From NCBI GenBank assembly GCA_016182905.1, contig JACPFR010000036.1:1-50782 (forward strand): DNA of 50,782 nt, read 5' to 3'. A program made the position numbers and the translations under genes. This DNA is from Elusimicrobiota bacterium (GTDB lineage: Bacteria; Elusimicrobiota; Elusimicrobia; UBA1565; UBA9628). Positions 17,118 through 25,916 of the stretch are shown here, in pieces (within the stretch, counting starts at the first letter, position 1; every line of letters begins with the position of its first letter). The notes beneath the pieces were generated by a model, which did not search any database, was not told the origin of the DNA, and saw only the letters and a list, made by a program, of their open reading frames with translations.

Positions 17118-19325
17118 ATGACCACGCACGCTAAAGAAGCGCACAAGCCCTACGTTTCCGACAAGACCGAGATGGCGGAGTACACGTGGTCGGCGGTCAT
17201 CGTCGGCGCGCTTCTCGGCATCGTCTTCGGCGCCTCCTCTCTTTATCTCGTGCTCAAGGTCGGCATGACGGTGTCCGCGTCCATCCCGATCGCGGTCCTC
17301 TCCATCACGCTCTTCCGCCTCTTCTCCAAGCTCACCGGCGCCCGCCAGACGACCATCCTCGAGAACAACATGGTGCAGACCGTCGGCTCCGCCGGCGAGT
17401 CCATCGCCTTCGGCGTCGGCGTCACGATGCCCGCGCTGATGATCCTGGGCTACGAGATGGACGCGGCGCGCGTGCTCATCGTGTCCTCGCTCGGCGGCCT
17501 GCTCGGCGTGCTGATGATGATCCCGCTGCGACGCGCCTTCATCGTCAAGCAGCACGGCGTCCTGCCCTACCCCGAGGGCACGGCCTGCGCGGACGTCCTC
17601 ATCGTCGGCGAGAAGGGCGGCTCCAGCGCCAAGACCGTGTTCACCGGCTTCGGCATCGCGTCCGTGTACAAGGTCCTCATGAGTGGCCTCAAGCTCTGGA
17701 ACGACACGCCCGAGCGCATGCTCAACTTCTTCAAGGGCGCCGCGATCAGCGGCGAGGTGGCCCCCGAGCTCGTCGGCGTCGGCTACATCATCGGCACCAA
17801 GATCTCCTGCGTCATGGTCGCCGGCGGCGTGCTGGCCTCCTGGGTGCTCATCCCGGCCATCAAGCTGTTCGGCGACGGCCTCACGGCCCCGCTGTTCCCG
17901 GCCACGAAGCTCATCCACGACATGTCCCCGGCCGAGATCTGGAAGTCCTACATCCTCTACATCGGCGCGGGCGCGGTCGCGACCGGCGGCATCATCTCCT
18001 TGTTCCAGGCCCTGCCCACGATCTACTCCTCGCTCAAGTCCGGCATCGCCGACATCCTCGCGGGCGGCACGGCGAAGGCCGCCGGCCCGAAGCTGCGCAC
18101 CGACGAGGACATGCCCAACTCCGTCGTCGTCGTCGGCAGCCTGTTCCTCGTGCTCGCGATCGCGGCGGCCCCGGGACTCGGCCTCGGCTTCGGCGTGAAG
18201 GGCATCATCGGCGCCATGCTGATCGTGCTGTTCGGCTTCCTGTTCGTGACCGTGTCCTCGCGCCTGACCGGCGAGATCGGCTCGTCCTCCAACCCGATCT
18301 CGGGCATGACGGTGGCGACCTTGCTGCTGACCTGCCTGATCTTCGTCCTTCTGAATCATTTCGACCCGAACGGCGGCTGGGTGGGCAAGGGCGCGCGCCT
18401 GACCGCGCTCTCCATCGCGGCCATCGTCTGCATCGCGGCCTCCAACGGCGGCACCACCTCGCAGGACCTCAAGACCGGCTACCTCGTCGGCGCCACGCCG
18501 CGCTACCAGCAGCTCGGCCTGCTCGTCGGCGCGCTGAGCTCGGCGCTCGTCATCGGCCTGACGCTCCTGCTCCTCAACAACGCGAGCACGACCTACGCCA
18601 AGCGGGACTTCCCAGCCATCACGGCCCCCGTCGCCGACCTGACGGTCACCGAGGGCCTGCAGGGCTCCGACTCCGCCATCGACGCCGCGACCTACAAGGT
18701 CTGGCACGTGGGCGAGGGAGAAGTGGCGGATCTGCCGCAAGGCAAATACCTCGTCGACGAGGCGGGCAAGATCAAGTACCTCGTGGACCCCGGCATCAAC
18801 GGCGTGGAGACCACGCGCCTCGACGGCACCAAGGTCCTCAAGTACAACGCGCCCAAGGCGCGCCTGATGTCCTTGATCATCGACGGCATCCTGACCAGCA
18901 AGCTCCCGTGGGGGCTGGTCCTGCTCGGCGTGGGCATCGCCTTGGTCCTCGAGCTGTGCCAGGTGCCGTCCCTGCCGTTCGCGGTCGGCGTGTACCTGCC
19001 GCTGTCGTCCTCGACGCCGATCTTCGTCGGCGGCCTGATGCGCTGGATCGCGGACAAGTGGACCAAGAAGACCGAGGCCGAGTCGGACATGAGCCCGGGC
19101 GTCCTGTTCTCCTCCGGCTACATCGCGGGCGGCGCCATCGCCGGCATCATCGTGGCCATCCTGACGATGAGCCCGAAGGTCTCCGCGCACCTGGACATGA
19201 GCGAGCGCTTCGCCGGCGTCGCCGGCAGCGACCTGACCTCGGTCCTGGCCTTCGGCGTGCTGACGGTCCTGCTCCTGCTGGTGGGCGGGGAGAAGTGGCT
19301 CTCGGACAAGAAGAAGAGGGCTTAG
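17118..19325 (+). CDS. OPT family oligopeptide transporter
   Basis: 735 residues with about 14-16 hydrophobic helices. Family marks include LYLVLKVGMTVSASIPIAVL (20-residue first core helix), TILENNMVQTVGSAGES, and LPYPEGTACADVLIVGEKGG. A soluble loop of about 100 residues (near 490-590) separates the two halves. OPT proteins are proton-coupled importers of peptides or metal-chelating peptide derivatives, distinct from ABC transporters. Its placement directly behind dppD and dppF, on the same strand, gives the locus two independent routes for peptide uptake. ATG 17118 follows dppF by 15 bases. The 12 bases between its stop and the convergent Fic stop hold no terminator that I can see. Confidence 0.9.
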   Translation: MTTHAKEAHKPYVSDKTEMAEYTWSAVIVGALLGIVFGASSLYLVLKVGMTVSASIPIAVLSITLFRLFSKLTGARQTTILENNMVQTVGSAGESIAFGVGVTMPALMILGYEMDAARVLIVSSLGGLLGVLMMIPLRRAFIVKQHGVLPYPEGTACADVLIVGEKGGSSAKTVFTGFGIASVYKVLMSGLKLWNDTPERMLNFFKGAAISGEVAPELVGVGYIIGTKISCVMVAGGVLASWVLIPAIKLFGDGLTAPLFPATKLIHDMSPAEIWKSYILYIGAGAVATGGIISLFQALPTIYSSLKSGIADILAGGTAKAAGPKLRTDEDMPNSVVVVGSLFLVLAIAAAPGLGLGFGVKGIIGAMLIVLFGFLFVTVSSRLTGEIGSSSNPISGMTVATLLLTCLIFVLLNHFDPNGGWVGKGARLTALSIAAIVCIAASNGGTTSQDLKTGYLVGATPRYQQLGLLVGALSSALVIGLTLLLLNNASTTYAKRDFPAITAPVADLTVTEGLQGSDSAIDAATYKVWHVGEGEVADLPQGKYLVDEAGKIKYLVDPGINGVETTRLDGTKVLKYNAPKARLMSLIIDGILTSKLPWGLVLLGVGIALVLELCQVPSLPFAVGVYLPLSSSTPIFVGGLMRWIADKWTKKTEAESDMSPGVLFSSGYIAGGAIAGIIVAILTMSPKVSAHLDMSERFAGVAGSDLTSVLAFGVLTVLLLLVGGEKWLSDKKKRA

Positions 19326-19337
19326 ACCGGACGCCGA

Positions 19338-20498
19338 CTATTGCGCGAGGTCGGGAAACAGCGCCGCGGCCATATCCACGGTGATATTGAGCCGCAGCGC
19401 CCCGTAGGCCGTCTCGCTGCGGACGGCCCGCGCGTCGAGCAGTTCTTTGATGATGATGGACGCCCGCCGCGTCTTCACCGCGCAGATCGCGGCCACCTCG
19501 CCGCGAGGCACCTCGCCCTGCGTCAACAGCCGCGCCAGGACCTTGGCGCCGGATCTGGAGACGAGTTTTTCGCCCAAGAGGCCGTCGACGTAGCGTCGGT
19601 AGCGCCGCTCGAGCTCCGTCAGCGTGAGCGCCGAATCCATGTATCGGATCTGCTCCAGGCAGGCCCGCAGGAAGAAATCACAGAAATCGGCCAAGGCCTC
19701 TTCAGAGAGAGGCCCGCGTCCGTCCAGCGAGTTCCGGGGGGGAAGGTCCGCGTTCGCGAGATGCCCGTCGTAGTCGGCCCGGTTCCGCGCGAAGGCCCGC
19801 GTGACGCTCCAAAGCCGCCCTTCGCCCACGCCGATGCGCGCGGCGTAGGCGCTCGTGAAGAGCCGCACGACCCTTCCATTCCCGTCCGAGAAAGGATGTA
19901 TCCACAGGAAGCGGTGATGAGAGGCGGCCATGCCGAGGAGCCTGCGCGTCCCGGCAAGCGCCTCGGGGCTGAGGAACTCCTCGAACTTGGCCAGAAAGCC
20001 CCGGATCTCCGCCCGCCTCTCGGGGGCGTCGTGCCGGCCCACGCTGATGCCCCGGTCGCGCAGTTCGCCCGGCACGACCGGGACGAGGTCTCCGCCCTCG
20101 GTCTTGGCGAACCGCATCGCCTCGGGAAGCTCGAGATAGAACCGCTCATGAAGCCAGCACAGGAACGCCTCGGAACAGACCCGAAGCCCGGGCTCGAGGC
20201 GCAGACGCTCGAACATCGCCTCTTGAACGCGGAGGTGGGCCAAGTGCTCCAGCTGATAATTGCGGGCCAGGGGGTCCTTCGATAGTTTTTTGTTGAGCGC
20301 CGCCTCGATGTCTTTGAGCCTGGACGGGTTGCCCTCCATGGCGTTCGTGTAGTAGCTGTTGATCTTCGCCATGAAACGCGCGATCTCTTCGAGGATGAGG
20401 GGGTGGAAGCCGCGTCCGAGCGCGGCGGCGGAGGAGGCGACGTCCAGCGCCAGTTGCTCGAGCGTCGGCGTTGATTTGGACGGGAGGACCGGGAACAT
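19338..20498 (-). CDS. Fic domain protein (probable AMPylase) with N-terminal inhibitory motif and C-terminal winged helix
   Basis: 386 residues. The Fic active-site loop is HPFSDGNGR (201-209), complete with the catalytic His, the Mg-binding Asp and the Arg. An N-terminal inhibitory helix TNAMEGN (51-57) fits (S/T)xxxE(G/N), making this a class II, self-inhibited Fic. The C-terminus (about 310-386) looks like a winged helix (EVAAICAVKTRRASIIIKEL), so it may bind DNA, perhaps its own promoter. Fic enzymes usually transfer AMP from ATP to a hydroxyl on a target protein; the target is unknown. It lies between the ATPase and permease halves of a peptide transporter, on the opposite strand. ATG 20498 sits six bases behind a consensus promoter. 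The AT-rich upstream region differs sharply from the rest of the window. Confidence 0.9.
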   Translation of the reverse strand: MFPVLPSKSTPTLEQLALDVASSAAALGRGFHPLILEEIARFMAKINSYYTNAMEGNPSRLKDIEAALNKKLSKDPLARNYQLEHLAHLRVQEAMFERLRLEPGLRVCSEAFLCWLHERFYLELPEAMRFAKTEGGDLVPVVPGELRDRGISVGRHDAPERRAEIRGFLAKFEEFLSPEALAGTRRLLGMAASHHRFLWIHPFSDGNGRVVRLFTSAYAARIGVGEGRLWSVTRAFARNRADYDGHLANADLPPRNSLDGRGPLSEEALADFCDFFLRACLEQIRYMDSALTLTELERRYRRYVDGLLGEKLVSRSGAKVLARLLTQGEVPRGEVAAICAVKTRRASIIIKELLDARAVRSETAYGALRLNITVDMAAALFPDLAQ

Positions 20499-20504
20499 GG
20501 GTCC

Positions 20505-20533
20505 AGTGTAGCCTGATTAGTGCTAGTTGTCAA
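20505..20533 (-). promoter_or_regulatory. Consensus promoter TTGACA-17-TACACT for the Fic gene
   Basis: Minus strand: TTGACA (20533-20528), 17-base spacer, TACACT (20510-20505), six bases, ATG at 20498. The best promoter in the window, and it predicts a leaderless message. The spacer contains the repeat TTAGTGCTAG (20517-20526). Confidence 0.75.
20517..20526 (+). repeat. Candidate operator TTAGTGCTAG, copy 1
   Basis: Lies between the -35 and -10 of the Fic promoter. An identical 10-mer in the same orientation is at 20606-20615. A bound protein here would block the promoter. Confidence 0.55.
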
Positions 20534-20570
20534 TGCCTGATTTAATTTAAATAAATTGTTAAATTAAATA

Positions 20571-20599
20571 TTGTTATTTAAATTATGCGCAGTTATAAT
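20571..20599 (+). promoter_or_regulatory. Candidate divergent promoter TTGTTA-17-TATAAT
   Basis: Plus strand: TTGTTA (20571-20576), 17-base spacer, TATAAT (20594-20599). The expected +1 (about 20606) falls on the second TTAGTGCTAG copy. It could drive a short RNA, a 12-codon ORF (20620-20658, MCAMMRSPLNQD) or the binding-protein gene at 20678. Confidence 0.45.
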
Positions 20600-20605
20600 T
20601 CCAGT

Positions 20606-20615
20606 TTAGTGCTAG
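20606..20615 (+). repeat. Candidate operator TTAGTGCTAG, copy 2
   Basis: Identical to 20517-20526, placed at the expected start of the divergent transcript. The interval 20499-20677 is otherwise an AT-rich island of about 180 bp with no gene longer than 12 codons. Confidence 0.5.
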
Positions 20616-20665
20616 ATAGATGTGCGCCATGATGCGCTCCCCGCTCAACCAGGATTGAAATAGTC

Positions 20666-20671
20666 TAGAAT
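20666..20671 (+). promoter_or_regulatory. -10 element TAGAAT, leaderless layout
   Basis: TAGAAT ends six bases before the GTG at 20678. No clear -35. Confidence 0.5.
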
Positions 20672-20677
20672 ACGCCG

Positions 20678-22399
20678 GTGCTGAGAATAGCGCTCGCGCT
20701 GCTCCTGACCTGCCCGTTAGGCGCCCGCGCCTCCAACGACCCCGCCGTCCTCGACTACGCCCTCGGCGCCGACGTGGACACGCTCGACCCGCACTGGGCC
20801 TACGACGCGGTCTCGCTGTTCGTCGTCGACCAGGTCTACGAGACCTTGATCGACTTCGCGGGGGACTCCCTCGACTCCTTCGAGCCGCGCGTCGCGACCG
20901 TCGTGCCGTCCCTGGCCAACGGCTTCCTCTCCAAGGACGGCCTGACCTACGCCTTCCCGCTGCGCCTGGGCGCGAAGTTCCACGACGGCTCGGCCTTGTC
21001 GGCCGTGGACGTGAAGTACTCGCTGATGCGCTTCCTGCTGCTCGACCGCGAGGGGGGGCCGTCGAACCTCCTGCTGACGGGGCTGTTGGGCGTGCGTCAT
21101 ACCGGCGAGCTGCCGCCCGACGTGATCTTCGACCTGGCCGACAAGGCCATCGCGACCGAGGGCGGCTCCGTCGTGCTCCGCCTGAAGAAGCCCTTCGCCC
21201 CGCTGCTGGGCATACTGGCCAACTTCGCCCACGTCGTGTCGAAAAGCCACGTGACCGCCAACGGCGGCTGGGACGGGCGCAAGGAGACCTGGGTCAAGCA
21301 CCGCAATCCGGCCAAGGAAGCCTCCGCGCTCTATTCCCGCGTCAACGGCACCGGCCCCTTCCGGCTCGAGTCCTGGGACCGGGAGGGCGGGAAGATCGCG
21401 CTCGCGCGCAACGACGCCTACTGGCGCAAGCCCGCGGGCCTCGCGCGGGTCAACCTGACGACGGTCGCGGAATCGCGCGAACGGCGACGGCGGCTCGCGG
21501 CGGGGGAGATCGACGTCGCGTTCGTCGAGCGGCGCTACCTGGACCAGTTCGAGGGCCTGCCCGGCGTGGTGGTGGCCGACGGCCTGCCCTCGCTCGAGGC
21601 CCAGAACACGGTGCTGTTCAACCTCGCCGTCGAGACGAAGGAGAACCCCTGGCTCGGGAGCGGCCGGCTCGGAGACGGCGTGCCGCCGGATTTCTTCGCC
21701 GACGCGGAGGTGCGCAAGGCCTTCGCGTTCGCCTTCGACTACGACGCCTTCATAAAGGAGGGCTACCGGAGCAAGGCCATCCAGGCGCACGGGCCCGTGC
21801 CGGCGGTGCTGTTCGGCTACAACCCGAAGCAGAAGCCCTGGCCGTTCTCTCCTTATCAGGCCGAGGGCGCGTTCAAGCGCGCGAGGAACGGGGAGGTCTG
21901 GGACAAGGGCTTCGCCCTGTCGCTGGCCTACACCGAGGGCAACTCCGAGCGCCGCATCGCCTGCCGCCTGCTCAAGGAGGGCGTCGAGAAGGTCAGCCCC
22001 AAGTTCCGCGTGGAGTGCCGCGCTCTGCCCGAGTCCAAGCTGCTCGACGAGTTCCGCGCCCGGCGCCTGCCCGCGTTCGTGTACCGCTGGATCCTCGACT
22101 ACCCGGACCCGCACAACGCCGTCGAGCCGTACCTGCACTCCCGCGGCTACTTCGCCTCGATGCTCGGCTACTCCAACCCGCGCGCCGACGCGATGATCGA
22201 GGCCGCGGCGGCCGAGATCGACCCGGCCAAGCGCAAGGCGCTGTACGCGGAGCTTCAGGCCCTGGCGATCTACGACGCGCCCGCGATCTTCACCGCGGAC
22301 AGCTACAGCATCGTCGTCCGCCGGGCGAAGGTGCTCGGCTGGCTGTATCACCCCATCCAACCCTACGGCACGCTGTACGAGGTCACCAAAATCCCATGA
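20678..22399 (+). CDS. Peptide ABC transporter substrate-binding protein (family 5), copy 1
   Basis: 573 residues with a signal peptide (MLRIALALLLTCPLGARA) and the cluster-C binding-protein fold: GADVDTLDPHWAYDA at the N-terminus, FPLRLGAKFHDGSALSAVDV (ligand-lobe signature), NGTGPFRLESWDREGG, and FAFAFDYDAFIKEGY. There is no lipobox Cys after the signal peptide, so it is probably soluble in the periplasm. It is the most divergent of the three adjacent binding proteins and may differ in ligand. GTG at 20678 lies seven bases behind a -10 box. The stop overlaps the next start (ATGA). It delivers peptides to the DppB/DppC permeases downstream. Confidence 0.88.
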   Translation: MLRIALALLLTCPLGARASNDPAVLDYALGADVDTLDPHWAYDAVSLFVVDQVYETLIDFAGDSLDSFEPRVATVVPSLANGFLSKDGLTYAFPLRLGAKFHDGSALSAVDVKYSLMRFLLLDREGGPSNLLLTGLLGVRHTGELPPDVIFDLADKAIATEGGSVVLRLKKPFAPLLGILANFAHVVSKSHVTANGGWDGRKETWVKHRNPAKEASALYSRVNGTGPFRLESWDREGGKIALARNDAYWRKPAGLARVNLTTVAESRERRRRLAAGEIDVAFVERRYLDQFEGLPGVVVADGLPSLEAQNTVLFNLAVETKENPWLGSGRLGDGVPPDFFADAEVRKAFAFAFDYDAFIKEGYRSKAIQAHGPVPAVLFGYNPKQKPWPFSPYQAEGAFKRARNGEVWDKGFALSLAYTEGNSERRIACRLLKEGVEKVSPKFRVECRALPESKLLDEFRARRLPAFVYRWILDYPDPHNAVEPYLHSRGYFASMLGYSNPRADAMIEAAAAEIDPAKRKALYAELQALAIYDAPAIFTADSYSIVVRRAKVLGWLYHPIQPYGTLYEVTKIP

Positions 22400-24144
22400 G
22401 ATCGATCCTGCTCGCCGCGCTCCTCGCCGTCCCCGCGTCCGCCGAGGTCAAGAACCCCGACGTCTTCGTGTACGCGACGATCGGAGACCCCGACAGCCTC
22501 GATCCGGCGTGGTCCTACGACACGGCGAGCCACAACATCCTCTCGAACGTCTACGAGTACCTGCTCGCCTACAAGGGCTTCGGCCTGGCCGCCAAGGACC
22601 TGATGCCGATGATCTCGGAGAAGGTGCCGAGCAAGGCCAACGGCCTCGTCTCCGCCGACGGCCGGACCTACCGCTTCCCGATCCGCAAGGGCGTGAAGTT
22701 CCACGGCGGGACGGTCCTCACGCCCGAGGACGCGCGCTACTCGATCCTGCGCTTCCTGCTGACCGACCGCGACGGCGGGCCCGCCTCTTTGCTGCTCGAG
22801 CCGATCCTCGGCGTGAACGGCACCCGCAAGGGCGGGAAGCTCGACCCGAAGGTCGTCGAGCGGGCGTTCAAGGCCGTGACGGTCGACAAGGGCGTCCTCG
22901 TGATCAGGCTCGAGCGGCCCTTCGCGCCGTTCCTCAGCATACTCGCCAACTTCGGCGCGATCGTCTCGAAGGACTTCTGCATGAAGAACGGCCAATGGGA
23001 CGGCGAGGCGGCGACGGTCGAGCGGTTCAACAACCCCCGGCGCGAGACGATGATCCCCAACGACAAGGCCGACGGGACCGGCGCGTTCAAGCTCGAGCGC
23101 TTCGACAAGACGAACAAGCAGACCGTGCTGACGCGGCACGACGGCTACTGGCGCGCGCCCGCGAAGCTGCGCCAGGTCGTCATCAAGGTCGTCGACGACT
23201 TCAACACGCGCAAGCTGATGCTCCAGGCCGGCGACGCCGACGCGGTGTACGGGCCGCAGATGTACTTCCCCCAGCTGCAGAGCGTGCCGGGGGCCGAGGT
23301 CATCGACGGCCTGCAGAACCTCGAGCGCTCGTCGATCCTGATGTTCACGTTCAAGATGAACCCGACGGCCAACCAGAACATCGGCTCCGGCCGGCTCGAC
23401 GGCAACGGCGTGCCGCCGGACTTCTTCTCCGACAAGGACGCGCGCAAGGCGTTCGCGTACAGCGTCGACTACGACGGGTACATCAAGGACATCCTGCGCG
23501 GCAAGGGACGGCGCACCTCGGGGGTCATCCCCTCGACCCTTCCCGGCGGGACGAGCCCCAAGCCGCAGTTCGCGCTCGACCCGAAGAAGGCGGAGGAGCA
23601 CTTCCGCAAGGCCTGGGGAGGACGTGTATGGGAGAAGGGGTTCAAGGTCTCCTTCGTCTTCAACGCCGGCTCCGCGCCGGCCCAGACCATCGCCCAGATG
23701 GTCAAGAAGAACGTCGAGGCGCTGAACCCGAGGTTCAAGGTCGACCTGCGCATGATCCAGTGGTCGACCTACCTCGAGCAGACCCAGGCCAACAAGATCC
23801 CGCTGTTCCTCGCGGCCTGGCAGGCGGACTACCCCGACGCCCACAACTTCGCCTTCCCGATCGTCCACTCCGCGGGCTACTACGCCGGCAAGCAGGGCTA
23901 CAAGAACCCGGCGGTGGACGCCGTCATCGAGGAGGCGGCCGCGACGGCCGACGAGACCAAGCGCGCCGCCCTGTACAAGAGGATGCAGTCCTTGGTCGAC
24001 GAGGACGTCCCGCACGTGATGCTCGCCGAGGGCGTGCGCTACCGGGCCCAGCGGACCTGGGTGAAGGGCTTCGTCTACCGCCCGACCTTCCCGGACATGC
24101 CCTATGGAGCGTACTACTACGACCTCCATAAGTCCGCGCAATGA
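22396..24144 (+). CDS. Peptide ABC transporter substrate-binding protein (family 5), copy 2
   Basis: 582 residues: signal peptide MRSILLAALLAVPASA, then EVKNPDVFVYATIGDPDSLD, FPIRKGVKFHGGTVLTPEDA, and DGTGAFKLERFDKTN. It is clearly closer to copy 3 than to copy 1: both mature proteins start EVKNP and share DPAxSYDTASH, NTRKLMLQAGDADA/GTRKLMLQAGDADA and KAEEHFRKAWGG. This argues for local duplication followed by divergence of the binding lobes. ATG 22396 overlaps the copy 1 stop. The C-terminus contains the start of a promoter for copy 3. Confidence 0.9.
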   Translation: MRSILLAALLAVPASAEVKNPDVFVYATIGDPDSLDPAWSYDTASHNILSNVYEYLLAYKGFGLAAKDLMPMISEKVPSKANGLVSADGRTYRFPIRKGVKFHGGTVLTPEDARYSILRFLLTDRDGGPASLLLEPILGVNGTRKGGKLDPKVVERAFKAVTVDKGVLVIRLERPFAPFLSILANFGAIVSKDFCMKNGQWDGEAATVERFNNPRRETMIPNDKADGTGAFKLERFDKTNKQTVLTRHDGYWRAPAKLRQVVIKVVDDFNTRKLMLQAGDADAVYGPQMYFPQLQSVPGAEVIDGLQNLERSSILMFTFKMNPTANQNIGSGRLDGNGVPPDFFSDKDARKAFAYSVDYDGYIKDILRGKGRRTSGVIPSTLPGGTSPKPQFALDPKKAEEHFRKAWGGRVWEKGFKVSFVFNAGSAPAQTIAQMVKKNVEALNPRFKVDLRMIQWSTYLEQTQANKIPLFLAAWQADYPDAHNFAFPIVHSAGYYAGKQGYKNPAVDAVIEEAAATADETKRAALYKRMQSLVDEDVPHVMLAEGVRYRAQRTWVKGFVYRPTFPDMPYGAYYYDLHKSAQ

Positions 24145-24148
24145 TTGC

Positions 24149-24154
24149 TAGAAT
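24149..24154 (+). promoter_or_regulatory. -10 element TAGAAT before the third binding-protein gene
   Basis: TAGAAT begins five bases after the copy 2 stop and ends seven bases before GTG 24162, so copy 3 and the permeases can be transcribed separately from copies 1 and 2. Confidence 0.45.
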
Positions 24155-24161
24155 ACGGCCC

Positions 24162-25916
24162 GTGATGCGGCTATTCCTCGTCGTGGCGCTCCTCCTGGCG
24201 ACCGTCCCGGCCTCGGCCGCCGGCGAGGTCAAGAACCCCGGCGTCTACACCTACCTGACGATCTCGGACGCCGACAGCCTCGACCCGGCGTACTCGTACG
24301 ACACCGCGAGCCACATGCTCGGCATGAACCTGTACGAGCCGCTGTTCCAGTTCGAGAAGACCTCGACCTCGAAGCTGATCCCGCTGATCGCCGCGGAGGT
24401 CCCGAGCCAGGAGAACGGGGGGATCTCGCCCGACGGGCGCACCTACGCCATCCCGATCCGCAAGGGCGTCCGGTTCCACGACGGCACGCCGATGACCCCC
24501 GAGGACGTGAAGTGGTCCATCCAGCGCTTCATCCTGTTCGACCGCGCCGCGGGCCCCTCTGCCCTGCTGATGGAGCCCCTTCTCGGGTACGCGTCGACCC
24601 GCGGAGAGGACGGCAAGATCCTGCCGGACGTCTGGAAGGACCTCCAGAGGGCCGTGAGCCTGCAGGGCGACAAGCTCATCCTGCGCCTGCCGCGGCCGTA
24701 CGCGCCGCTGCTGACCATACTCGCCTCGTGGGCCCCCGTGCTCCCCAAGGCCTGGGCCGTCCAGAACGGGGACTGGGACGGGACCGAGGCGACCTGGCAG
24801 AAGCACAACAACCCGAGCAAGGAGTCCTCGCCCTTCTTCGAGCGCGCGATGGGCACGGGGCCGTTCAAGCTCGAGCGCTGGGACCGCAAGACGAAGGAGT
24901 TCATCCTGGCCCGCAACGAGCTGTACTGGCGCGCGCCGGCGAAGCTCAAGAACGTGGTCATCAAGGGCGTCGCCGAGTTCGGCACGCGCAAGCTGATGCT
25001 CCAGGCCGGCGACGCCGACGCGATCTACGCGGACCGCCCGCTGCTGACCCAGCTGCAGGGCATCCCGGGCGTGAAGGTCATCGACGACCTTCCGACGGTC
25101 GAGATGAGCCCGGTCGTGTTCTTCACCTACCAGATCAACGCCCAAGGCAACTCCTTCCTCGGCAGCGGCAAGCTCGACGGCAAGGGCATTCCCGCCGACT
25201 TCTTCTCCGACAAGGACGTGCGCAAGGCGTTCGCCTACGCGTTCGACTACAAGGGCTTCATCAGCGACGTGATGCGCGGCAAGGGCACCCAGGCGACGGG
25301 CCCCATCCCGAAGTCGCTCCCCGGCCACAACCCGAAGGGACGGAAGTACTCGCTCGACATGAAGAAGGCCGAGGAGCATTTCCGCAAGGCGTGGGGCGGG
25401 AAGGTCTGGGAGCAGGGCTTCAAGTTCACCATCGCCTTCAACACCGCCAACCTCCCGCGGCAGACGGTATGCCAGATCCTGAAGCGCAACGTCGAGGGGC
25501 TCAACCCCAAGTTCAAGATCGACGTGCGCGCCGTCGAGTGGCCGACCTTCCTCGACAACTACAAGCAGTCGAAGCTCCCGATCTTCGTGATGGGCTGGAA
25601 CGCCGACTACCCCGACCCGCACAACTTCGCGTTCCCGATGCTGCACTCGAAGGGCGACTATCCGGCGACGCAGAAGTTCAAGAACCCGGAGTTCGACCGC
25701 CTGGTGGAGGAGGCCAACGCCGAGACGAGCGCCTCCCGGCGCAAGGACCTCTACGCGAAGCTCCAGGACCTGGCGTTCGAGGAGGCGCCGCAGCTCTACA
25801 TCATCGACGCCGTCCGCTACCGCACCCAGCGCGAGTGGGTGAAGGGGTGGTATCACAACCCCATCTTCCCCGACTCGCCCTACGGAAGCTACTTTTACCC
25901 GATCTCCAAGGAATAG
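24162..25916 (+). CDS. Peptide ABC transporter substrate-binding protein (family 5), copy 3
   Basis: About 584 residues. Signal peptide RLFLVVALLLATVPASA, then GEVKNPGVYTYLTISDADSL, IPIRKGVRFHDGTPMTPEDV, and GTGPFKLERWDRKTKEF. Starts at GTG 24162 or ATG 24165 follow a TAGAAT box; the upstream in-frame ATG 24141 would overlap copy 2 and put charged residues before the signal peptide, so I reject it. Being next to the permease genes, it is the likeliest cognate binding protein. Paralogous to copy 2. Confidence 0.88.
   Translation: MMRLFLVVALLLATVPASAAGEVKNPGVYTYLTISDADSLDPAYSYDTASHMLGMNLYEPLFQFEKTSTSKLIPLIAAEVPSQENGGISPDGRTYAIPIRKGVRFHDGTPMTPEDVKWSIQRFILFDRAAGPSALLMEPLLGYASTRGEDGKILPDVWKDLQRAVSLQGDKLILRLPRPYAPLLTILASWAPVLPKAWAVQNGDWDGTEATWQKHNNPSKESSPFFERAMGTGPFKLERWDRKTKEFILARNELYWRAPAKLKNVVIKGVAEFGTRKLMLQAGDADAIYADRPLLTQLQGIPGVKVIDDLPTVEMSPVVFFTYQINAQGNSFLGSGKLDGKGIPADFFSDKDVRKAFAYAFDYKGFISDVMRGKGTQATGPIPKSLPGHNPKGRKYSLDMKKAEEHFRKAWGGKVWEQGFKFTIAFNTANLPRQTVCQILKRNVEGLNPKFKIDVRAVEWPTFLDNYKQSKLPIFVMGWNADYPDPHNFAFPMLHSKGDYPATQKFKNPEFDRLVEEANAETSASRRKDLYAKLQDLAFEEAPQLYIIDAVRYRTQREWVKGWYHNPIFPDSPYGSYFYPISKE

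What the first reader, a model, noticed from the sequence alone, without database searches (positions are those of the whole stretch)
20499..20677. AT-rich divergent control region of a Fic gene with a duplicated operator
This 180-bp stretch is far more AT-rich than the window. It contains a consensus promoter for the Fic gene (TTGACA-17-TACACT-6-ATG) with TTAGTGCTAG between the boxes, and facing it TTGTTA-17-TATAAT with an identical TTAGTGCTAG at its expected +1. One regulator could repress both. The Fic protein has a C-terminal winged-helix-like domain and could be that regulator, an autoregulated self-inhibited AMPylase.
Basis: partly seen in the sequence, partly recalled or inferred. Interest (0 to 1): 0.6.

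Follow-up and report, generated by a model that had tools for sequence, protein, structure and literature searches.

The report
Self-repressing Fic gene's direct-repeat operator
The repeated DNA word in front of this Fic (AMP-transferring, toxin-like) enzyme gene is part of a four-part binding site that the enzyme's own DNA-binding tail very probably reads to switch off its own gene, and the same layout, with matching changes in the protein's DNA-reading helix, recurs across many unrelated bacteria.

Summary
TTAGTGCTAG occurs twice (20517-20526, 20606-20615), 89 bp apart, and nowhere else in the 3.98 Mb Elusimicrobia genome. The Fic promoter TTGACA-17-TACACT-6-ATG is as described.

The 10-mer is half of a larger operator. 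Each copy is the inner member of a tandem direct repeat (GCAY...TAGCAYT, period 13), giving half-sites at -128/-115 and -39/-26 from the Fic start. Orthologs with unrelated upstream neighbours keep this layout. Wider family members have CGGCA, CGGACA or CGGCCA repeats with period 12 (61/72 upstreams against 166/1680 control windows). The two clusters lie 55-57, 65-68, 75-79 or 97 bp apart, in about 10.5-bp helical steps.

Of all Fic columns, recognition-helix residue 348 best predicts operator type (Arg in 18/18 GGMCA genes, 0/28 GGCA genes); 15 of 15 readable held-out loci obey. This points to Fic itself as the repressor.

Not supported: control of a facing promoter. That box is missing in the closest ortholog, which keeps the same divergent gene.

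Fic autorepression is known (CccR), but through inverted repeats. The direct-repeat, helically phased, probably looping operator and its recognition code were not found described. No binding or repression was measured.

The parts
19338..20498 (-). Fic gene, 386 aa: N-terminal inhibitory motif TNAMEGN (51-57), Fic motif HPFSDGNGR (201-209), C-terminal winged helix (about 315-370) with recognition helix 343-355
   Evidence: Pfam Fic E 5.6e-13; AlphaFold2 mean pLDDT 93.5; invariant columns across 50 homologs
20505..20533 (-). Fic promoter TTGACA-17-TACACT, 6 nt before ATG; leaderless mRNA likely (inferred)
   Evidence: the same geometry, 5-7 nt before the start codon, in 7 of 8 Elusimicrobia orthologs
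20519..20525 (-). Proximal inner half-site TAGCACT (-27 to -21), in the -35/-10 spacer; core of the first 10-mer 20517-20526
   Evidence: Conserved in all Elusimicrobia orthologs at the same place
20533..20537 (-). Proximal outer half-site GGCAT (-39 to -35), touching the -35 box, 13 bp from the inner one
   Evidence: degenerate in L038
20538..20605 (.). AT-rich spacer between the two operator clusters (84% AT in the Fic-direction spacer)
   Evidence: Spacer AT-richer than the gene in 31 of 31 family loci
20608..20614 (-). Distal inner half-site TAGCACT (-116 to -110); core of the second 10-mer 20606-20615
   Evidence: Conserved in 7 of 8 orthologs, lost in L036
20622..20626 (-). Distal outer half-site CGCAC (-128 to -124), 13 bp from the inner one
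   Evidence: degenerate in L033
20571..20599 (+).
   Evidence: Consensus match; absent in the closest ortholog L033

Best explanation
The stretch is the self-operator of a class II Fic protein. The winged helix at the C-terminus of Fic reads each GCA-containing half-site through its recognition helix (343-355; residues 347 and 348 set the specificity). Binding to the proximal pair covers the -35 box and the spacer of the Fic promoter and blocks RNA polymerase. The second tandem pair about seven helical turns upstream lets symmetric Fic dimers hold one winged helix on the distal cluster and one on the proximal cluster, closing a short loop through the AT-rich spacer and tightening repression. 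The gene so keeps itself at a low level; repression would lift when Fic is diluted, consumed or changed in shape. Shown by sequence: four-part layout, its conservation, helical spacing, promoter overlap, covariation with the recognition helix. Inferred: binding, repression, looping, leaderless translation, AMPylation activity, release signal. Confidence below is for direct self-repression through these repeats; for looping alone it is about 0.5.
For: Half-sites at -128/-115 and -39/-26 recur in Elusimicrobia orthologs. Period-12 tandem repeats upstream of distant homologs: 54/65 against 2.6 in shuffles, 61/72 against 166/1680 real control windows. Residue 348 is the best of all columns for operator type, Arg in 18/18 GGMCA and 0/28 GGCA; residue 347 is Arg with CGG, Ser/Thr with TAG. 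Operator class and residue 348 each change six times on a tree made without the winged helix; the supported foursome L189/L190 (Asn, CGGCA) and L191/L194 (Arg, CGGCCA) differ together. Held-out loci: code obeyed in 15 of 15. Cluster spacing in about 10.5-bp steps. Model with confident winged helix; best fold and sequence match is CccR, shown to repress its own promoter.
Against: No binding or repression data for any member of this family. Residue-operator statistics are inflated by kinship: about five independent switches, only two on strongly supported branches. L036 lacks the distal pair; some half-sites are degenerate; no repeats of the known words found for L091, L106, L193. The only characterised relative, CccR, uses an inverted, not a direct, repeat. 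Some family members seem to have a single cluster.
Confidence: 0.85

Rival explanations
1. Divergent control region: one repressor (Fic) controls both the Fic promoter and the facing TTGTTA-17-TATAAT promoter, whose +1 carries the distal 10-mer.
For: Both consensus promoters are present with a 10-mer at a sensible place; a solute-binding-protein gene starts at 20678 on the plus strand.
Against: The facing promoter is absent in L033, which keeps the same divergent gene (88% identical) and the distal site; the solute-binding-protein gene is not detected beside the other seven orthologs. Chance -10 boxes are expected in a 20% GC stretch.
Confidence: 0.08
2. The repeats are operators for an unlinked transcription factor, not for Fic.
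For: Many regulators bind tandem sites over promoters; no binding by Fic was measured.
Against: The repeats follow the Fic gene across phyla and onto plasmids, and the repeat sequence covaries best with the Fic recognition helix among all Fic columns, including within one supported group.
Confidence: 0.05
3. The direct repeats are a target-site duplication or recombination site of a horizontally moving gene.
For: The gene is patchily distributed and common on plasmids, some beside IS elements and toxin-antitoxin genes; an AT-rich insert between 10-bp direct repeats can look like a target duplication.
Against: Fixed place relative to promoter and start codon, period of 12 or 13, helical phasing between clusters and a sequence tied to the winged helix; a target duplication would show none of these.
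Confidence: 0.02

Closest known systems
CccR (YPK_0951, Yersinia pseudotuberculosis; PDB 7XUX; PMC9755527)
   Same: Class II Fic with C-terminal HTH; shown to repress its own promoter by binding around the -35 and -10 boxes; best sequence match in the PDB (E 3e-15) and best fold match (TM 0.76).
   Different: CccR's footprint is an inverted repeat AGATAATCAT-N26-ATGATAATCT; here the half-sites are tandem direct repeats (period 13 or 12) in two phased clusters. CccR is a T6SS effector that AMPylates FtsZ; nothing of that kind is known here.
SoFic / SO_4266 (PDB 3EQX, 3ZCN) and the Sofic defence protein (PMC12249575)
   Same: Fic domain with C-terminal winged-helix domain; PADLOC SoFic profile matches at E 5.7e-25.
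   Different: Far below NCBIfam's SoFic cut-off (35 against 550 bits). The small antitoxin gene AS1 lies downstream of E. coli Sofic; here a convergent transporter gene ends 12 bp from the Fic stop. No operator is reported for Sofic in the paper read.
CbFic2 (CBU_0822, Coxiella burnetii; PDB 8CIL; PMC10628234)
   Same: Class II Fic with C-terminal winged HTH that binds DNA; fold match.
   Different: DUF4172-type N-terminus; bound random DNA with nanomolar affinity and no specific site is known; proposed to act on host histone.
DNA-looping repressors with two phased operators (lac, gal, araC; general knowledge)
   Same: A remote and a promoter-overlapping operator at helically phased distance.
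   Different: Looping itself is inferred.

Membership tests
Class II Fic (AMP-transferase) protein | Fic motif HPFx[DE]GN[GK]R | tested here: met
   HPFSDGNGR at 201-209; H201, P202, F203, G206, N207, G208, R212 invariant in 50 homologs; Pfam Fic
Class II Fic (AMP-transferase) protein | N-terminal inhibitory helix motif [ST]xxxE[GN] | tested here: met
   TNAMEG at 51-56; E55 and G56 invariant
Class II Fic (AMP-transferase) protein | AMPylation activity | not testable with these tools
   No assay
CccR-type autorepressing Fic | C-terminal (winged) HTH domain | tested here: met
   AlphaFold2 helices 315-327, 332-339, 343-355 and strands, pLDDT over 90; matches 7XUX over 384 columns
CccR-type autorepressing Fic | Operator overlapping the gene's own promoter | tested here: met
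   Conserved half-sites on the -35 box and spacer
CccR-type autorepressing Fic | Inverted repeat with a 26-bp gap | tested here: not met
   Half-sites are direct repeats at 13 bp (12 in most of the family), duplicated about 90 bp away
CccR-type autorepressing Fic | Binding and repression by the protein | not testable with these tools
   Only covariation evidence
SoFic defence protein | NCBIfam NF046030 cut-off 550 bits | tested here: not met
   35 bits
SoFic defence protein | Small downstream antitoxin gene (AS1) | tested here: not met
   The convergent plus-strand gene ends at 19325, 12 bp from the Fic stop at 19338; no room for it directly downstream
DNA-loop repressor | Two operators at helically phased spacing | tested here: met
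   Vector length at 10.5 bp 0.84 for 25 loci under 80% identity and 0.87 for 9 under 60%; uniform null reaches it in 0 and 7 of 20000
DNA-loop repressor | Protein bridges both operators | not testable with these tools
   Needs footprinting with spacer-length variants or microscopy

The most novel reading that the evidence does not exclude
A large, horizontally spread family of Fic AMP-transferases are one-protein self-regulating modules: symmetric Fic dimers bridge two direct-repeat clusters into a tight, helically phased loop over their own leaderless promoter, with a simple recognition code at residues 347-348, and the catalytic or oligomeric state of the enzyme opens the loop, so that the enzyme reports its own activity to its promoter.
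Probability: 0.35. Interest if true: 0.78.

Novelty: new variant of a known kind. Interest (0 to 1): 0.6.

Why it matters
The CccR paper (PMC9755527) says class II proteins are about 80% of Fic proteins and that almost nothing is known of their function or control. A conserved self-operator shared by roughly a hundred examined homologs from many phyla, with a readable protein-DNA code, would explain how such enzymes are held at a low level without a separate antitoxin and would give an experimental handle on the signal that releases them. It would also add a case of direct-repeat reading by what are probably symmetric HTH dimers, which is rare (PMC9723621). The rule (Arg at 348 with GGMCA, other residues with GGCA, Ser/Thr at 347 with TAG) can be tested quickly.

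Tried and rejected
Rfam: no RNA family in 20300-20900. Terminators: none in 20400-20800. Facing promoter: rejected on conservation. Wider regulon: in the own genome the pair pattern gives the two Fic sites and one further match (C61:30736) that was not examined; of four AT-rich hits in other Elusimicrobia genomes none showed a Fic gene just downstream in the sequence held (L121, L129, L136, L140). ACCGGCA-N5-MCCGGCA in 30 other genomes gives 0-6 hits each, too close to chance to claim other targets. Target-site duplication: considered and rejected. Exact 6-mer repeats in 12 other Fic subfamily genes: no general lag-12 signal, but two interesting cases. Literature: CccR is the only autoregulated Fic with a mapped operator found in the library held; subscription-only papers could not be searched.

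Full report
What is there. The window lies in an Elusimicrobia genome of 3.98 Mb (nearest named relatives are Elusimicrobia MAGs). The Fic gene is 19338-20498 on the minus strand, 386 aa. Its promoter is TTGACA (20533-20528), 17 bp, TACACT (20510-20505), 6 nt, ATG. The 10-mer TTAGTGCTAG lies at 20517-20526 and 20606-20615, both on the plus strand, and nowhere else in the genome. GC is 37% in the stretch and 20% between the two copies, against 69% for the window. The facing TTGTTA-17-TATAAT is present as a consensus match.

The operator is bigger than the 10-mer. Read in the Fic direction the word is CTAGCACTAA. Eight orthologs (65-86% identical) were found in Elusimicrobia. In these and in the window, NGCAY half-sites sit at about -128 and -115 and at -39 and -26 from the start codon: 13 bp within each pair, 89-91 bp between pairs. 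Example, L040: CTAGCACTAAAATCTAGCACT (distal) and TAGCATTGACAAGTAGCACT (proximal). Exceptions: L036 has no distal pair, L033 a degenerate distal outer half-site, L038 a degenerate proximal outer one. A pattern for the pair (GCAYNNNNNNSTAGCAYT), searched in 58 related whole genomes, finds the Fic promoters, often twice each, among few other matches. Fic promoters of 7 of 8 orthologs have TTGACA (or TTGAAA), 17-18 bp, a TATAAT-like -10 box, and only 5-7 nt to the start codon; this suggests a leaderless mRNA, an inference.

The same plan holds far beyond Elusimicrobia. In 65 non-redundant upstream regions of more distant homologs (mostly 33-51% identical: Proteobacteria, Acidobacteria, Cyanobacteria, Planctomycetes and others, as named in the record titles), an identical 6-mer recurs at a lag of exactly 12 bp in 54, against 2.6 in dinucleotide shuffles. 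Against real DNA from the same loci the figures are 61/72 and 166/1680. The repeated words are CGGCA, CGGACA or CGGCCA. L087 has five copies in a row. Often there are two clusters, as in the window.

The two clusters are in helical register. The distance from the last repeat of the distal cluster to the first of the proximal one is 55-57, 66-68, 75-79 or 97 bp by an automatic rule on loci with two full clusters; a wider, hand-read set gives 55-57, 65-68, 75-79 and 97. The best period is 10.2-10.4 bp in the automatic set and 10.5 in the other. At 10.5 bp the vector length is 0.84 for 25 loci under 80% identity and 0.87 for 9 loci under 60%; uniform nulls reach this in 0 and 7 of 20000 draws. 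The spacer is AT-richer than the gene in 31 of 31 loci. This is what a short DNA loop would need; the loop itself is inferred.

The Fic protein itself is the probable reader. AlphaFold2 on a 50-sequence alignment gives mean pLDDT 93.5, with a C-terminal winged helix whose third helix is 343-355. Among all Fic alignment columns, number 348 in that helix carries the most information on operator type. It is Arg in 18 of 18 genes with CGGACA/CGGCCA and in none of the 28 assigned to CGGCA (one of the 28, L036, is really of the TAG type, miscalled by the counting rule). Column 347 is Arg where the operator word starts CGG and Ser/Thr where it is TAG. On a tree built without the winged helix, operator class and residue 348 each change six times. 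The clearest case is one supported group of four: L189 and L190 (Asn348, CGGCA) beside L191 and L194 (Arg348, CGGCCA). Column statistics are inflated by kinship: only about five independent switches exist, two of them on strongly supported branches.

A test with a prior prediction. It was written down beforehand that new family members should have an identical 6-mer at lag 12 and obey the code. Sixteen new loci were then read (14 plasmid, 2 viral). Readable repeats of the known words are present in 15: eleven with period 12 and an exact 6-mer (in L187 the exact 6-mer lies outside its degenerate repeats), L188 with one mismatch, and L189, L190 and L192 with period 13, a departure from the predicted 12. 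L193 (Hymenobacter) has only a CGGAA pair at lag 12 and was counted as unreadable. All 15 obey the residue-348 rule: 7 of 7 with Arg have GGMCA, 8 of 8 without have GGCA (L195 and L196 are close relatives of each other). The annotated start codons of the plasmid genes lie mostly 5-10 nt after the last repeat (with 56), again leaving little room for a ribosome-binding site.

The facing promoter. In L033, the closest ortholog, the same solute-binding-protein gene (88% identical) lies divergently, but the facing promoter is gone while the distal site stays. In the other seven orthologs this gene is not detected in the sequence held. The distal cluster thus belongs to the Fic gene, not to a neighbour.

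What is known. CccR of Yersinia pseudotuberculosis is the closest solved relative by sequence and fold. It represses its own promoter through its HTH domain, on an inverted repeat with a 26-bp gap; its regulatory and toxic activities are separable, and its two recognition helices stand about 70 A apart (PMC9755527). So a self-repressing Fic is not new. The direct-repeat, two-cluster, phased operator and the recognition code were not found in the papers held. A symmetric dimer with far-apart DNA-binding domains could place one domain on each cluster, which would explain why half-sites are direct rather than inverted repeats; this is inference. CbFic2 binds random DNA tightly, with no specific site known (PMC10628234); one can now ask whether its own promoter holds one.

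Limits. No binding, repression, start-site or enzyme assay. Catalytic activity and biological role (defence, stress, other) are unknown; the PADLOC SoFic profile match is only a hint of a defence role. Operator classes were assigned by simple patterns, a few by hand (L034 and L036 set to TAG; L041, L091, L106 and L193 left without a class on the tree).

Noticed in passing
L014 (upstream of 1119) and L030 (upstream of 1014): Members of another, about 30%-identical Fic subfamily with a C-terminal HTH-like segment carry three tandem direct repeats of ACTTTAYG type at 12 and 11 bp directly before the start codon: self-operators may be general to Fic genes with a DNA-binding tail.
   Followed up: partly
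L018, upstream of 620: A further Fic gene has GGGTAATA words in direct and inverted orientation just before its start.
   Followed up: no
L087, 100-150 bp upstream of the Fic start: Five head-to-tail copies of a 12-bp operator unit (ACCGGCATAGGA) in Neorhizobium, a natural repeat expansion.
   Followed up: no
L184-L197: Fic genes of this family are common on rhizobial, roseobacter and cyanobacterial plasmids, some beside IS elements, AbiEii-type or VapBC genes.
   Followed up: partly
L036, upstream of 3001: This ortholog has lost the distal cluster and lacks a recognisable -35 box at the usual place.
   Followed up: no
window 20678-25916: Three adjacent peptide-type solute-binding-protein genes in a row, followed by transporter permease-like genes.
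   Followed up: no
window 20620-20658 (+): A 12-codon open frame (MCAMMRSPLNQD) follows the facing consensus promoter; probably chance.
   Followed up: no
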